From the NCBI RefSeq assembly GCF_900103415.1, contig NZ_FMXB01000014.1:1-64000 (forward strand): a stretch of 64,000 nucleotides of DNA, written 5' to 3'. Positions 15,726 through 20,619 of this stretch are shown in pieces. The stretch is from Methanobrevibacter millerae (GTDB lineage Archaea; Methanobacteriota; Methanobacteria; Methanobacteriales; Methanobacteriaceae). The notes under the pieces were generated by a model. It was given only the letters and a program-made list of their open reading frames with translations, was not told the DNA's origin and made no database searches. A program made the translations under genes and the position numbers. The stretch's first letter is position 1. Each line of letters begins with the position of its first letter.

Positions 15726-17117
15726 ATGAAATATAAAATTTTTCTAAGTAGTACCAGAGAATTTGAAAAAGAAAGGAATTTCATTAAACAGGAAATCGAA
15801 AATGATTATTTATTAAATCGATTTTTTGAAATTTTTGCATTTGAGCAAAAATCTGCATCAGGAGATTCTCCAGAAAAATTGTACTGTGAAGAGGTTGTTA
15901 ATTCAGATATTTACGTTGGTTTAATTGGTTCGGATTATGGGAGTATATTGGAATCCGGAATATCTCCTACGGAACTTGAATATGATTTGTATAATAAAGC
16001 TCATAATGATGCTTTAATTTATATTAAAAATGCTAATTTCAGGGATGATAAAACAAATGAATTCATTAAAAAAGTTAGTAATGAGCACAGTTATCAAAGA
16101 TTTAATGATCAATATGGATTATTTAAACAGGTTCGTAGAAGTTTAGGTGATTTCATCCTTAAAAATTTAAAAAACTATAAATCATTTGACTCAGAGATAT
16201 TATCTAATTCATCATGTGATGATGTTGATGTGGAAGCATTAGAATTATTTTTTAATGTTTTAGATTATAATCCTATTGAAAAAATAAGGGATGAAAAAGG
16301 TTTAACAAAAGTATTATCAACTATCAAAGCAGGAGATTATGAAAATGGTGAGTTCAGATTAAATAATAGTGGCGCATTATTCTTTGCTAAAGATATATCT
16401 AAATTTAATATTGCTCATGAAGTTAAAATGGTTCGTTTTTTTGATAATGAAGGAATAAAAACGTTTGAAAAAACCGAATTAAATTCTTCATTATTAAAAA
16501 TTTTGAAAGAAGCAGAAACATTTTTCTATAAGGTAACAATCAATATTTCTGAAATTAATGGATTTGAACGAGAAACTACTCATGAATATCCTTTTGAAGC
16601 TATTAGGGAAGCATTAGTCAATGCTTTAGCCCATAGGGATTATTCTATAACTACTGCTCCAATTACATTTTACATTTATAATGATAGGATTGAAATTACA
16701 AGTCCCGGACGTTTAGTATATCCATTAAAAGTTTCTGATTTGGAAGATAATGATCCAGTCCATAGAAATGAGCTTATATGCAATATATTTTCAAAAACAA
16801 AGTATATGGAACATGTAGGTACTGGTATTCGCAGAATGAAAGATGCAATGATTAATCATGGTTTAAATGAACCTGAATTCATTGAATCCGGTGAATTTTT
16901 TAAAGTAATTTTCTGGTTAAATTCGAGTGATAATATTCTTAATTCAAGACAAAAAATGCTTTTAAGATTGAATATTGATGAAATCAATAAAACGGAGTAT
17001 ATGAAATTATTTGATGTTTCTGTAAATACTGCATCTTCGGATTTAAATCAATTGGTTGGATACGGCTATTTTGATAGAATTAAAAATGGCCGTGCCGTTA
17101 TTTTCAAAAGAAAATAA
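15726..17117 (+). CDS. DUF4062 - GHKL-type ATPase (HATPase_c_4) - wHTH protein
   Basis: A 463-residue three-part protein. Residues 1-100 are DUF4062: YKIFLSSTREFEKERNFIK and VVNSDIYVGLIGSDYG. Residues about 190-400 correspond to the region that usually follows an AlbA_2/Schlafen nuclease: LNNSGALFFAKDISKFN, then the ATPase segment EAIREALVNALAHRDYS, DRIEITSPGRL and MEHVGTGIRRMKDAM. The C-terminus is a winged helix (FDVSVNTASSDLNQLVGYGY). The AlbA_2 nuclease is absent and DUF4062 takes its place. Such AlbA-type ATPases are often linked to regulation or phage defence, and this gene lies between toxin-antitoxin and TIR genes. The GAGG before the ATG is a good ribosome binding site. The defence role is inferred. 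Confidence 0.75.
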   Translation: MKYKIFLSSTREFEKERNFIKQEIENDYLLNRFFEIFAFEQKSASGDSPEKLYCEEVVNSDIYVGLIGSDYGSILESGISPTELEYDLYNKAHNDALIYIKNANFRDDKTNEFIKKVSNEHSYQRFNDQYGLFKQVRRSLGDFILKNLKNYKSFDSEILSNSSCDDVDVEALELFFNVLDYNPIEKIRDEKGLTKVLSTIKAGDYENGEFRLNNSGALFFAKDISKFNIAHEVKMVRFFDNEGIKTFEKTELNSSLLKILKEAETFFYKVTINISEINGFERETTHEYPFEAIREALVNALAHRDYSITTAPITFYIYNDRIEITSPGRLVYPLKVSDLEDNDPVHRNELICNIFSKTKYMEHVGTGIRRMKDAMINHGLNEPEFIESGEFFKVIFWLNSSDNILNSRQKMLLRLNIDEINKTEYMKLFDVSVNTASSDLNQLVGYGYFDRIKNGRAVIFKRK

Positions 17118-17121
17118 GGTA

Positions 17122-17143
17122 GGATAGAAAAATAATTCTATCC
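17122..17143. terminator. Bidirectional stem-loop between convergent genes
   Basis: GGATAGAA at 17122-17129 pairs with TTCTATCC at 17136-17143. It lies 5 nt after the DUF4062 gene stop and overlaps the last codons of the convergent beta-helix gene, so it can terminate transcription from both sides. Confidence 0.5.
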
Positions 17144-18571
17144 CTTATATTCCTGGCCGTTAACCAAAAGCTTATGGCCGTTTAAATCGATTTTTCCTGA
17201 GTTTTCAAGGCTTGAAACAGAACTGTCACCTGTAAGCGTCCAGGTTGAGCCGCTGTCAATGACGAGTGTTGTGTTTCCGGTTGAGTTGATTGCACCTTCG
17301 AATTTAGCGTTTTTCATGTTGAATGCAAGGGAGCTGATTGAATCGACGATGATGTTTCCTTTAAGCTCCTGATTGCTTGCCGTCAGGTTAACGTCTCCTC
17401 CGTTTGAGCCTTCAGTTCCCCACTGGTTCTGGCCTGAAATGTCAAAGAGTATTCCGCTTCCAAAGTCAAATGTGGAGGATTCAAGGATGATGTTTGCCTT
17501 TGTGTTTGTTACGTGAAACATCGGAACTTCCTTGTAATAGTTTGAAGACGGATCGACTGAGAGCTTGGAGTCTTTACAGTTAAAGACGGAGGTTCCCACA
17601 TCAGCATCTCCGCTCATGCTCTGATAGATGAAGACTCCTGCAAGGTCAACGTAGTTATCGCCGTCCTTACGGTTTCCTTCACCGAAAGCGTTCAGCTGGC
17701 AATTTTCAAGGGTAATTGAGTTTTTACCTTCAATGCAGGCAATCTGTGAAACGTATGCCGTACCCATTGATTCTTTAACGGTGATGTTTCCCGTCGAATA
17801 GATTATCGGTGAGCCACGTCCGGACTCCTTGCTGACACCTGTGTTTATGATTGAATTTTTAACGGTAACGTTACCTTCTCCACGGTCGGTTGCAAGGCCT
17901 GCGCAGCTGTTTCCGTCAGTGTTTATTATCACGTTTTCGGCGTTGATGATTCCTCCGAAGGTTGAGTCAAGCCCACGGGATTTGTCCTGATGGGTCGTAA
18001 TCTTTACGTTCTTGATGTTTGCTGTAGTCTGGTTTGTTCCCTCAGCGGTCTTTTGAAGCTGTTCCGGTGGCTTTTCAGGAGCTTCTCCGCTTCCTGCATC
18101 TGGTGGGGTTCCTCCTCCCATGCCTCCAGGTGAGCCCTGTCCGGTATCTGTATTGGTTACGAATATTCCGTTTGATCCCTTGGAGTTGGTATTTATTTCA
18201 CAGTTTTCAATCGTCAATTGGCTTTTGTCCTTAACTAAAACGGCCGAATTGACACCGTAAAAGTCAGCGTCGTCACCTGAGCTTTGCGTGTCTCCGGTCT
18301 TGTTTATCATGGAGTTTGTTAACTTCAATATTCCTGAATTGTTTACAAAAATTGTGTTCTCGTCACTTTTGTCGGATTTGAAAAGTCCCTTGTCGGCGCT
18401 TTGGCTGTCGCTTTCCACCTTAAGGACTCCCTTTTCATCCAGAGCGTTCGCATCAACAATAACGCTGTCGGCAGTCATTGAGGATGTACCTGTTCCCGAA
18501 AATGTTAAATAGCCCGCTAGTATGATTAATACAACGGCTATCGCTGCAAGTATCAATATTTTTCTGTTCAT
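17138..18571 (-). CDS. Secreted or membrane-anchored beta-helix surface protein
   Basis: A protein of 477 residues from the ATG at 18571, with one N-terminal hydrophobic helix (LILAAIAVVLIILAGYLTF) acting as signal or anchor. The rest shows right-handed parallel beta-helix character, with many short strands carrying N-x-(T/S) sites (TIENCEINTNSKGSNGIFV, NVTVKNSIINTGVS, SITLENCQLNAFGEGN). A Gly/Pro linker SPGGMGGGTPPDAGSGEAP interrupts the helix near residue 150. It resembles the large adhesin-like proteins of gut methanogens and the DUF of bacterial cell-surface autotransporter-like helices. Likely role: surface contact. No cell-wall anchoring domain is visible at the C-terminus. A TTG start at 18592 is possible but has no ribosome binding site. 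Confidence 0.7.
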   Translation of the reverse strand: MNRKILILAAIAVVLIILAGYLTFSGTGTSSMTADSVIVDANALDEKGVLKVESDSQSADKGLFKSDKSDENTIFVNNSGILKLTNSMINKTGDTQSSGDDADFYGVNSAVLVKDKSQLTIENCEINTNSKGSNGIFVTNTDTGQGSPGGMGGGTPPDAGSGEAPEKPPEQLQKTAEGTNQTTANIKNVKITTHQDKSRGLDSTFGGIINAENVIINTDGNSCAGLATDRGEGNVTVKNSIINTGVSKESGRGSPIIYSTGNITVKESMGTAYVSQIACIEGKNSITLENCQLNAFGEGNRKDGDNYVDLAGVFIYQSMSGDADVGTSVFNCKDSKLSVDPSSNYYKEVPMFHVTNTKANIILESSTFDFGSGILFDISGQNQWGTEGSNGGDVNLTASNQELKGNIIVDSISSLAFNMKNAKFEGAINSTGNTTLVIDSGSTWTLTGDSSVSSLENSGKIDLNGHKLLVNGQEYKG

Positions 18572-18626
18572 GGTAATTAGTTTATTGTTCAATATTTTTA
18601 ATTATTTTGAAATGCAATAGTTAACC

Positions 18627-19733
18627 ATGAGTAAAAATTTCAGCTATCTTGATGAGATGATTCATGGCGGTGAAGAGGAGATTGTTCTGGAATGTGATAT
18701 CATTTTGGACAATACTGAAGAGATGAAATATCTTGAGGGTATTGATTTAGACGTTGACGATATCGTAATTGACGGCAATGGCTTTAGCATTGATGCCCGT
18801 GGAAGGACACGGATATTCCTTTGTAGCGGTGAGAATCTTACTATTCGAAATATCGTGTTTAAAAACGGATTTGCCCGTGAAAGCGGCGGGGCGATAATGC
18901 TTGAAGGCGGTGAGGTGGTTCTTGAAGAAGCTAGATTTTCTTTTAATTCCTGCGGTGAGGATGGAGGAGCTATACACAATGATGAAGGTTCCTTGACTGT
19001 AAGGAAATGTGAGTTTAGTGATAATAATGCCGGAGACTTTGGCGGAGCTATCAACAACTGGGGCGATTTGGCTATAATTGGATCGGTGTTTAAGGAGAAT
19101 AAGGCAAATTACGGTGGTGTTTTGTTTAATGCCGGTGATTTAAACGTAAAGGAGTCAGTATTTTCTTTAAATAATGCAAATCGTGGTGCGGTGATATACA
19201 ATGAGGACGGTGATTTAACTATTTGTGAATCATCATTTAATGATAATGTTGCTAGTGAATGCGGAGGTGCTATAATTAACAGAAACTGTGACATGAGCAT
19301 TTCCAAGTCTATTTTTAATGCTAACAGGGCAAATGACGGCGGTGCAGTGCATACTACCGGTGAAGTGAGGGTTATTGAATCTTCATTTGAGGATAATGTG
19401 GCTTCCAGTAATGGCGGAGCGATTTTTGCCGGCAGGGCTGATTTGGCCGTTAAGGATTGTGAGTTTTCAGGTAATGCGGCTGGTGGCAACGGCGGAAGTT
19501 TGTATGCATATGATGGTGAAGCAAGTGTTTTGAAATCTTTATTTAAGGCCAATAAGGCAGATTTTGGAGGAGCTTTCAGTAACGTTAAAAACGTGATTGA
19601 TATTTCAGATTCTGAGTTTATTGATAATTTAGCTAATGAATCAGGAGGGGCAATTTATCTGGAGAAATCCGATTGTGAAGCTAGTGATTTAGCTTTTAGT
19701 GAAAACAAGCCCGATGATGTCTTTGAAAAATAG
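18627..19733 (+). CDS. Intracellular right-handed beta-helix repeat protein
   Basis: A 368-residue protein made of about eleven Pmp-like beta-helix repeats with the pattern GGAI-x-N...S-x-F-x-x-N-x-A, for example ESGGAIMLEGGEV, DFGGAINNWGDLAIIGSVF and SSNGGAIFAGRADLAVKDC. The first 70 residues form a cap with EEEIVLECDIILDN and a DIVIDGNGFSIDARGRTR segment like the start of surface beta-helices. Unlike those, there is no signal peptide or membrane helix, so it should stay in the cytoplasm. It is followed after 40 nt by a tandem-TIR gene on the same strand. A sensor or scaffold role for the TIR protein is a hypothesis. The divergent secreted beta-helix gene begins only 55 nt away. Confidence 0.7.
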   Translation: MSKNFSYLDEMIHGGEEEIVLECDIILDNTEEMKYLEGIDLDVDDIVIDGNGFSIDARGRTRIFLCSGENLTIRNIVFKNGFARESGGAIMLEGGEVVLEEARFSFNSCGEDGGAIHNDEGSLTVRKCEFSDNNAGDFGGAINNWGDLAIIGSVFKENKANYGGVLFNAGDLNVKESVFSLNNANRGAVIYNEDGDLTICESSFNDNVASECGGAIINRNCDMSISKSIFNANRANDGGAVHTTGEVRVIESSFEDNVASSNGGAIFAGRADLAVKDCEFSGNAAGGNGGSLYAYDGEASVLKSLFKANKADFGGAFSNVKNVIDISDSEFIDNLANESGGAIYLEKSDCEASDLAFSENKPDDVFEK

Positions 19734-19773
19734 GATATTAGTATTTTTGGTTAATAATTAAGAGGTGTTGGTC

Positions 19774-20619
19774 ATGAGATTAGGTGAGAGGATTAATGGC
19801 TTATTTAAAAAAAGGGATGATGAAATTAATGCAGATATTATGGAAGAGGATAACGGGGGTTTCGTATTCATTTCCCACTCCCACAAGGACATTAAAAAAG
19901 TCCGCAAGATTAGAAACATGATGGAGCATTCCGGATTTGAGCCGATATGCTTCTTTTTGAAATGCCTTACCGATGATGATGAGGTTGAAGATTTAATCAA
20001 GCGTGAAATCGATGCAAGGGAATGGTTCGTTTATGTCGACAGCCCAAATTCCCGGAAGTCCAAGTGGGTTAAAACGGAAAGGGACTACATAGAATCGATT
20101 GGAAGCAAAAAGGTCATAAACGTGAAACTGGATTCAAACGCACCGATGGAAAGCGTTTCAAAAATCCTATCTAAAGGATTGACGATTTTCATCAGTTATT
20201 GTGCTAAGGACGGTGAAATCGTATGGTCGCTATATCACAAGCTGGTTGAAAAGGAATTTCGGGTTTTCTGCGCTCCTCTTTCACTTGAAGAGGATTCTTA
20301 TGTGGAGGAAATAATTGACAATATGGAGTGTGCATGTGAATTGGGACTGATTCTTGCGGTCTTTTCTAAGGATTCCGTTAATTCCTCATACTTTAAAAGG
20401 GAAATTGACACTGCTTTTGGCAGCAATGGATTAATAGTTCCCCTCTACATTGGTGATGTTACGGATAATCTGCCTGAGGAGTATGAATTATATCTTGGTG
20501 ATGTGGATGGCATTGAGGTTGAAGGCGAGATTACAGAAGAGGTCCTTGATGATGTTGCAGAGCAAATTGCAGTCATTGCACGAGACCTAATTCAGTCACA
20601 GCTGGATGAGCTTGATTGA
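19774..20619 (+). CDS. Tandem TIR-domain protein
   Basis: A 281-residue protein with two TIR domains back to back. TIR1 (about 28-130) starts GGFVFISHSHKD and contains SKWVKTE, with the putative catalytic Glu102. TIR2 (about 134-260) starts GLTIFISYCAKD and contains SSYFKRE with Glu210. These glutamates match the NADase catalytic position (WVHKE in SARM1). GAGGTG lies 6 nt before the ATG at 19774; the GTG at 19765 is part of that site. There is no signal peptide. TIR domains cleave NAD+ or make signalling nucleotides in bacterial, archaeal and plant immunity. Its partner is probably the beta-helix gene just upstream. Confidence 0.85.
   Translation: MRLGERINGLFKKRDDEINADIMEEDNGGFVFISHSHKDIKKVRKIRNMMEHSGFEPICFFLKCLTDDDEVEDLIKREIDAREWFVYVDSPNSRKSKWVKTERDYIESIGSKKVINVKLDSNAPMESVSKILSKGLTIFISYCAKDGEIVWSLYHKLVEKEFRVFCAPLSLEEDSYVEEIIDNMECACELGLILAVFSKDSVNSSYFKREIDTAFGSNGLIVPLYIGDVTDNLPEEYELYLGDVDGIEVEGEITEEVLDDVAEQIAVIARDLIQSQLDELD

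What the first reader, a model, noticed from the sequence alone, without database searches (positions are those of the whole stretch)
18627..20619. Cytosolic beta-helix protein paired with a tandem-TIR protein
A Pmp-like beta-helix protein, normally exported, lacks any signal peptide and is followed after 40 nt by a protein with two TIR domains, each with the catalytic glutamate in place (Glu102 in WVKTE, Glu210 in YFKRE). This looks like a two-gene immune module: an extended repetitive scaffold or sensor and an NAD-consuming or signalling effector. I know of no described defence system with this composition.
Basis: partly seen in the sequence, partly recalled or inferred. Interest (0 to 1): 0.7.

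Follow-up and report, generated by a model that had tools for sequence, protein, structure and literature searches.

The report
Archaeal beta-helix and tandem-TIR gene pair
A gut-type methanogen carries an inside-the-cell ladder-shaped repeat protein beside a protein with two enzyme-like TIR domains, and because relatives repeatedly fuse these two parts into one protein, the pair probably works together as a sensor-and-effector switch that consumes NAD, although nobody has tested it.

Summary
Gene A (18627-19733) is a right-handed beta-helix with no signal peptide. Gene B (ATG 19774-20619) starts 40 nt later, behind a Shine-Dalgarno-like motif, and has two TIR_2 domains with Glu102 and Glu210 in the catalytic column.

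The pair itself is not conserved. Four ~50% relatives of gene A have no adjacent TIR, and gene B's only close relative (41%, broken by a TAG) follows a secreted protein.

The association of the two parts is recurrent. In 138 Methanobacteriaceae genomes I found nine ORFs that fuse the same beta-helix family to TIR. Both domain orders and at least two TIR clades occur, and one fusion lies elsewhere in this genome. The same beta-helices also sit beside, or fuse with, DUF4062, a TIR-like NADase domain (7 of 13 TEP1-like genes).

Best reading: a beta-helix sensor/oligomeriser coupled to TIR-type NAD chemistry. 'Immune' is plausible but untested; surface-contact signalling is a serious rival, because many membrane TIRs here neighbour secreted adhesins. 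It is neither complete Thoeris nor Swarozyc. I found no description of beta-helix-TIR systems in the open-access library searched.

The parts
18627..19733 (+). Gene A: cytosolic PMP-repeat right-handed beta-helix, 368 aa, with conserved N-terminal cap (residues ~3-85)
19762..19767 (+). Shine-Dalgarno-like GAGGTG, 6 nt before the ATG of gene B, inside the 40-nt intergenic gap
19774..20619 (+). Gene B: tandem TIR protein, 281 aa, with an N-terminal stretch MRLGERINGLFKKR of amphipathic pattern
19864..20145 (+). TIR domain 1 (TIR_2), WxxxE motif WVKTE
20077..20079 (+). Codon of Glu102, the predicted catalytic Glu of TIR1
20185..20478 (+). TIR domain 2 (TIR_2), motif YFKRE
20401..20403 (+). Codon of Glu210, the predicted catalytic Glu of TIR2
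15726..17117 (+). Neighbour: DUF4062 (TIR-like NADase family) plus HATPase_c_4 protein, two genes upstream; membership in the module not shown
17138..18592 (-). Neighbour: protein with an N-terminal hydrophobic (signal-like) segment, divergent from gene A; a similar-looking gene lies near the gene A relative in G057

Best explanation
Genes A and B are probably one small operon encoding a sensor/scaffold plus a TIR effector. A is a rigid cytosolic beta-helix that recognises a trigger and/or arrays its partner. B carries two TIR domains that, once brought together, cleave NAD+ (depletion, or an ADP-ribose-type signal), leading to growth arrest or downstream signalling. B may sit at the membrane through its N-terminal helix. 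Shown here: the two ORFs, their folds by sequence (A also by a model), the Glu residues, and recurrent fusion of homologues of A and B. Inferred: co-transcription, physical contact, the trigger, catalysis, and the outcome for the cell.
For: Nine ORFs fuse the cap-type beta-helix with TIR in nine genomes of three genera, in both orders: G000, G019, G055, G069, G078, G081, G084, G095, G113 (Pfam). One of them (C5:97531-98535) lies in the same genome as the window. By blastp the beta-helix halves match gene A (E 6e-55 to 1e-14) and some of the TIR halves match gene B (best E 1e-5). The TIR tree puts the fusions in at least two TIR clades. Cytosolic TIR genes are fused or adjacent to cytosolic beta-helices in 11 of 46 cases, against 4 of 195 nearby genes (Fisher p 3e-6). 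The same beta-helices adjoin or fuse with TEP1-like DUF4062 genes in 7 of 13 cases, three as same-strand pairs 12-47 nt apart, one of these in this genome. DUF4062 is a TIR-like NADase (PMC13174449). The catalytic Glu is kept in 124 of 129 TIRs and in 11 of 11 fused TIRs. TcpO of M. olleyae is a working TIR NADase dependent on its Glu (PMC10022894, PMC10937652).
Against: The exact pair was found once. Gene A's four closest relatives lie in TIR-free neighbourhoods, and one of those genomes (G057) has no TIR_2 match at all, so A can work without B. Most cytosolic beta-helices have no TIR partner. No phage link was found. The structure prediction of gene B failed (pLDDT 34). Related genomes make the counts partly non-independent, and the background sample came from TIR-selected loci.
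Confidence: 0.5

Rival explanations
1. The module is not antiviral but senses the cell surface or contact with other cells: TIR proteins of these archaea report on secreted beta-helix adhesins, and cytosolic beta-helices are their inner counterparts.
For: The fusion in this genome and three others forms a conserved three-gene operon: beta-helix-TIR, a multi-TM protein of about 140 aa, and a secreted beta-helix of about 300 aa (38-57% and 55-74% identity between members). 18 of 65 membrane TIR genes lie next to a secreted beta-helix, against 2 of 195 background genes (p 2e-10). Gene A lies near a signal-bearing surface-type protein and polysaccharide genes.
Against: The window pair contains no secreted or membrane-spanning part itself; four other fusions sit in operons with a ClpB-like ATPase and a Ser/Thr kinase rather than adhesins.
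Confidence: 0.3
2. Chance neighbours: gene A is an ordinary member of a large beta-helix family acting alone, and gene B is an acquired orphan TIR gene that happens to sit behind it.
For: Relatives of A have no TIR beside them; the nearest relative of B follows a secreted Ig-like protein; cap-type beta-helices are abundant (57 cap matches in this genome), so a chance neighbour costs only a few per cent.
Against: Same strand, 40-nt gap with a Shine-Dalgarno-like motif and no terminator-like site called in the gap; repeated A-B homologue fusions, including one in the same genome.
Confidence: 0.25
3. The TIR domains act as protein-protein adaptors without catalysis; A and B form a structural scaffold.
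For: TIR1 departs from the usual BB-loop region (ICFFLKCL in place of the VWYD..I..G form); TIR2 has Tyr where TIR1 has Trp of WxxxE.
Against: Both Glu residues are kept, as in 124 of 129 related domains; a Methanobrevibacter TIR has proven NADase activity.
Confidence: 0.12
4. A degenerate Thoeris system: B is ThsB, with its ThsA partner elsewhere.
For: PADLOC ThsB profiles hit B at E 7e-11.
Against: No SIR2-SLOG or other ThsA gene beside it; gene A matches no PADLOC profile; many TIRs hit ThsB profiles weakly.
Confidence: 0.04

Closest known systems
Swarozyc / TEP1 DUF4062 NADases (PMC13174449, preprint 2026)
   Same: TIR-like NADase with an auxiliary domain for sensing and oligomerisation; the same cytosolic beta-helix family is fused or adjacent to TEP1-like DUF4062 genes in these archaea, including this genome
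   Different: Gene B has canonical TIR_2 domains, not DUF4062; Swarozyc is a single bacterial protein with another auxiliary domain, triggered by phage portal
Thoeris (ThsA/ThsB)
   Same: TIR protein with catalytic Glu; ThsB_TIR profile hit
   Different: No ThsA; the partner is a beta-helix
TcpO, TIR NADase of Methanobrevibacter olleyae (PMC10022894)
   Same: Same archaeal group, active TIR, v-cADPR (2'cADPR) product, Glu-dependent
   Different: Single C-terminal TIR (residues 204-341 of 341)
Adhesin-like proteins of Methanobrevibacter (e.g. PMC11532034)
   Same: Right-handed beta-helix, PMP repeats
   Different: Those are surface proteins; gene A has no signal peptide and cannot have one
NTP-dependent conflict systems (PMC7159879)
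   Same: TIR combined with repeat domains, and in relatives with ClpB-like ATPase and Ser/Thr kinase
   Different: No vWA-MoxR or STAND core beside the window pair; the terms beta-helix and Methanobrevibacter do not occur in that paper

Membership tests
TIR NADase family | TIR fold by profile | tested here: met
   PF13676 E 5.6e-23, two stretches; AF2 model failed, so not confirmed by structure
TIR NADase family | Catalytic Glu (WxxxE region) | tested here: met
   Glu102 and Glu210 in the conserved column
TIR NADase family | NAD+ cleavage | not testable with these tools
   needs assay
Thoeris | ThsB TIR protein | tested here: inconclusive
   weak profile hits E 7e-11 and above
Thoeris | ThsA partner gene adjacent | tested here: not met
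   gene A is a beta-helix with no PADLOC hit
Swarozyc | DUF4062 domain in the protein | tested here: not met
   gene B: DUF4062 only E 0.009, below cut-off; a separate DUF4062 gene lies at 15726-17117
Cytosolic cap-type beta-helix family (defined here) | Conserved N-terminal cap, PMP repeats, no signal peptide | tested here: met
Beta-helix-TIR systems of Methanobacteriaceae (defined here) | Cap-type beta-helix linked to TIR by fusion or tight operon | tested here: met
   operon-like pair here; nine fusions elsewhere
Beta-helix-TIR systems of Methanobacteriaceae (defined here) | This two-gene arrangement conserved between species | tested here: not met
   no relative of A has a TIR next to it; relative of B differs
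Anti-phage defence system | Protection against a virus | not testable with these tools
   no viral link found

The most novel reading that the evidence does not exclude
Methanobacteriaceae have a large intracellular receptor repertoire in which right-handed beta-helices, descended from or shared with surface adhesins, play the part that leucine-rich repeats or WD40 domains play elsewhere, and switch on TIR, DUF4062-STAND and TIR-RyR nucleotide signalling; the window pair is the split form of such a receptor.
Probability: 0.3. Interest if true: 0.85.

Novelty: new variant of a known kind. Interest (0 to 1): 0.62.

Why it matters
TIR effectors are controlled by sensor or oligomerising modules, and archaeal ones are barely known. 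If the beta-helix is such a module, gut methanogens hold dozens of candidate intracellular receptors built on an adhesin fold, which would link the unexplained excess of beta-helix genes in Methanobrevibacter to NAD-based immunity or contact signalling, and give testable handles in organisms that matter for methane emission and the human gut.

Tried and rejected
AlphaFold of gene B with a two-row alignment failed (pLDDT 34). A phmmer search of PDB sequences with gene B found nothing. Viral, phage and plasmid searches with gene B or the cap found nothing usable, so a viral origin was set aside. Genome contigs gave only one distant Methanoperedens TIR. I first took the ~750-aa neighbours of the TIR-TIR-RyR genes for ClpB; blastp showed they are RyR-protein paralogues. 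Sigma-70 promoter matches were ignored (archaeon). The N-terminal MGFxD[RK] tag regex was written after seeing examples, so its enrichment (13/68 against 7/766) is only suggestive. Several 'cytosolic' beta-helix neighbours of membrane TIRs are cut at contig or locus ends, so their signal peptides cannot be judged; I did not use them.

Full report
WHAT IS THERE. Gene A (18627-19733, +) encodes 368 aa of Chlamydia-PMP-type repeats (PF02415, E 4e-20). A single-sequence AlphaFold model has pTM 0.73 with short strands at regular spacing, and its best structural matches are right-handed beta-helices, the surface adhesin PfbA and chondroitinase B (Foldseek E only 0.007-0.008 because the model is of moderate confidence). 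The in-frame codons upstream are TAG TTA ACC ATG, so there is no room for a signal peptide. Gene B begins at ATG 19774, 40 nt after gene A stops, with GAGGTG six bases before it, and encodes 281 aa with two TIR_2 domains (E 5.6e-23). Glu102 and Glu210 fall in the same alignment column as the Glu of 124 of 129 TIR domains of this archaeal family.

THE PAIR ITSELF IS NOT CONSERVED. In 138 genomes of its family gene B has one good relative, G094:C75 (41%), interrupted by a TAG and sitting behind a secreted Ig-like protein. The four closest relatives of gene A outside this genome (48-52%, in G057, G063, G048, G085) have no TIR gene beside them. G057:C84 shares several genes with the window neighbourhood (SAM synthetase, acyltransferase, NADPH reductase, a similar signal-bearing protein; compare), and G057 has no TIR_2 match at all. 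So gene A does not need gene B in these relatives.

THE ASSOCIATION IS RECURRENT. I built a profile of the conserved N-terminal cap of gene A. It occurs in 96 of 151 genomes of the phylum sample, none of the listed matches lying outside the family. I then took every TIR_2 match in the 138 genomes, fetched most of the surrounding DNA, and looked for both domains. Nine ORFs in nine genomes of three genera carry both (Pfam confirms TIR in eight of those nine; the ninth, G081, is nearly identical to the G078 one). Orders differ: TIR-TIR-helix in G078 and G081, TIR-helix in G055, G084 and G095, helix-TIR in G000, G019, G069 and G113. The G000 case (C5:97531-98535) is in the window's own genome. Gene A matches the helix halves at E 6e-55 to 1e-14 and gene B matches some of the TIR halves at E 1e-5 or weaker, so these are fusions of homologues of the two window genes. 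In the TIR tree the fused TIRs fall in at least two clades, and the window's two TIRs fall in neither, so the window pair is best seen as a further, separate association.

A SECOND TIR-LIKE PARTNER. A 2026 preprint (PMC13174449) shows that DUF4062 is a TIR-like NADase, active in the bacterial defence system Swarozyc and in eukaryotic TEP1. In the family I examined 13 DUF4062 proteins of this TEP1-like or a related large kind in genomes with cap-type helices: seven are fused with (G019, G074) or directly adjacent to (G000, G087, G095, G078, G089) a cytosolic beta-helix; in G000, G087 and G095 the two genes are on one strand 12-47 nt apart. Two further 1,403-aa DUF4062 proteins of another type have no such neighbour. 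The window also holds a DUF4062 plus HATPase_c_4 gene at 15726-17117.

COUNTS. Cytosolic TIR genes are fused or adjacent to cytosolic beta-helices in 11 of 46 cases, against 4 of 195 other genes from the same loci (Fisher p 3e-6); TEP1-like DUF4062, 7 of 13 (p 2e-7). These tests ignore relatedness and the background is small, so the fusions are the stronger evidence.

OPERON CONTEXTS IN RELATIVES. Type I: TIR(-TIR)-helix, ClpB-like AAA+, Ser/Thr kinase, coiled-coil protein, conserved at 44-71% among G055, G078 and G084 (G081 is nearly identical to G078). Type II: helix-TIR, a multi-TM protein of ~140 aa, a secreted helix of ~300 aa, conserved in G000, G019, G069 and G113. Separately, membrane TIR gene pairs lie beside secreted beta-helix proteins in 18 of 65 cases. 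G086 and G113 have TIR-TIR-RyR proteins beside RyR paralogues; a phage RyR-domain protein degrades cyclic ADP-ribose signals (PMC13232231), which fits nucleotide signalling in this group.

MECHANISM. Most likely A arrays or gates the TIRs of B: TIR enzymes need oligomerisation (stated in PMC13174449), and an extended solenoid is suited to ligand binding and to ordering partners. The product and outcome are open. TcpO from M. olleyae makes a cyclic ADPR variant and depletes NAD+ in a Glu-dependent way (PMC10022894), so the chemistry exists in the genus. Gene B's first 14 residues have an amphipathic pattern (moment 0.52) shared with several cytosolic beta-helices of the family, hinting at membrane association; this is weak. 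Whether the trigger is a virus or a surface event cannot be told from sequence; type I contexts lean to conflict systems, type II and the membrane TIRs lean to the cell surface.

KNOWN OR NEW. Full-text searches found no paper on beta-helix-TIR proteins in archaea; the library is open-access only. PADLOC has no model that takes gene A and only ThsB-like hits for gene B; ThsA is absent. I class it as a new variant of TIR-effector systems.

Noticed in passing
L132, L134, L135, L141: Conserved four-gene operon: TIR(-TIR)-beta-helix fusion, ClpB-like AAA+, Ser/Thr kinase, coiled-coil protein.
   Followed up: partly
G000:C5:95945-98535; L074, L143, L145: Conserved three-gene operon: cytosolic beta-helix-TIR fusion, small multi-TM protein, secreted beta-helix.
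   Followed up: partly
G000:C5:131056-138714; L158, L164, L165, L166, L080, L162: Cytosolic beta-helix adjacent to or fused with TEP1-like DUF4062 proteins (NTPase, and WD40 in several).
   Followed up: partly
L133, L139: TIR-TIR-RyR proteins of about 1080 aa beside RyR paralogues, a possible maker-and-reader pair for ADP-ribose signals.
   Followed up: partly
L081, L083-L085, L089, L091, L108 and others: Membrane TIR gene pairs (one of CWIAPR type, one of CWIKSR or CWMKSR type) beside secreted beta-helix adhesins in Methanobrevibacter-type genomes.
   Followed up: partly
L126, L129: TIR domains fused to DUF285-type repeats, another repeat partner.
   Followed up: no
L069 (G095:C11:8164-11966): Two neighbouring proteins with four TIR domains each.
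   Followed up: no
window 15726-17117: DUF4062 plus HATPase_c_4 protein; a ~490-aa DUF4062 class occurs in many genomes of the family, function unknown.
   Followed up: no
L147 (G094:C75:684-1460): Closest relative of gene B is split by a TAG stop, either a pseudogene or an assembly error.
   Followed up: no
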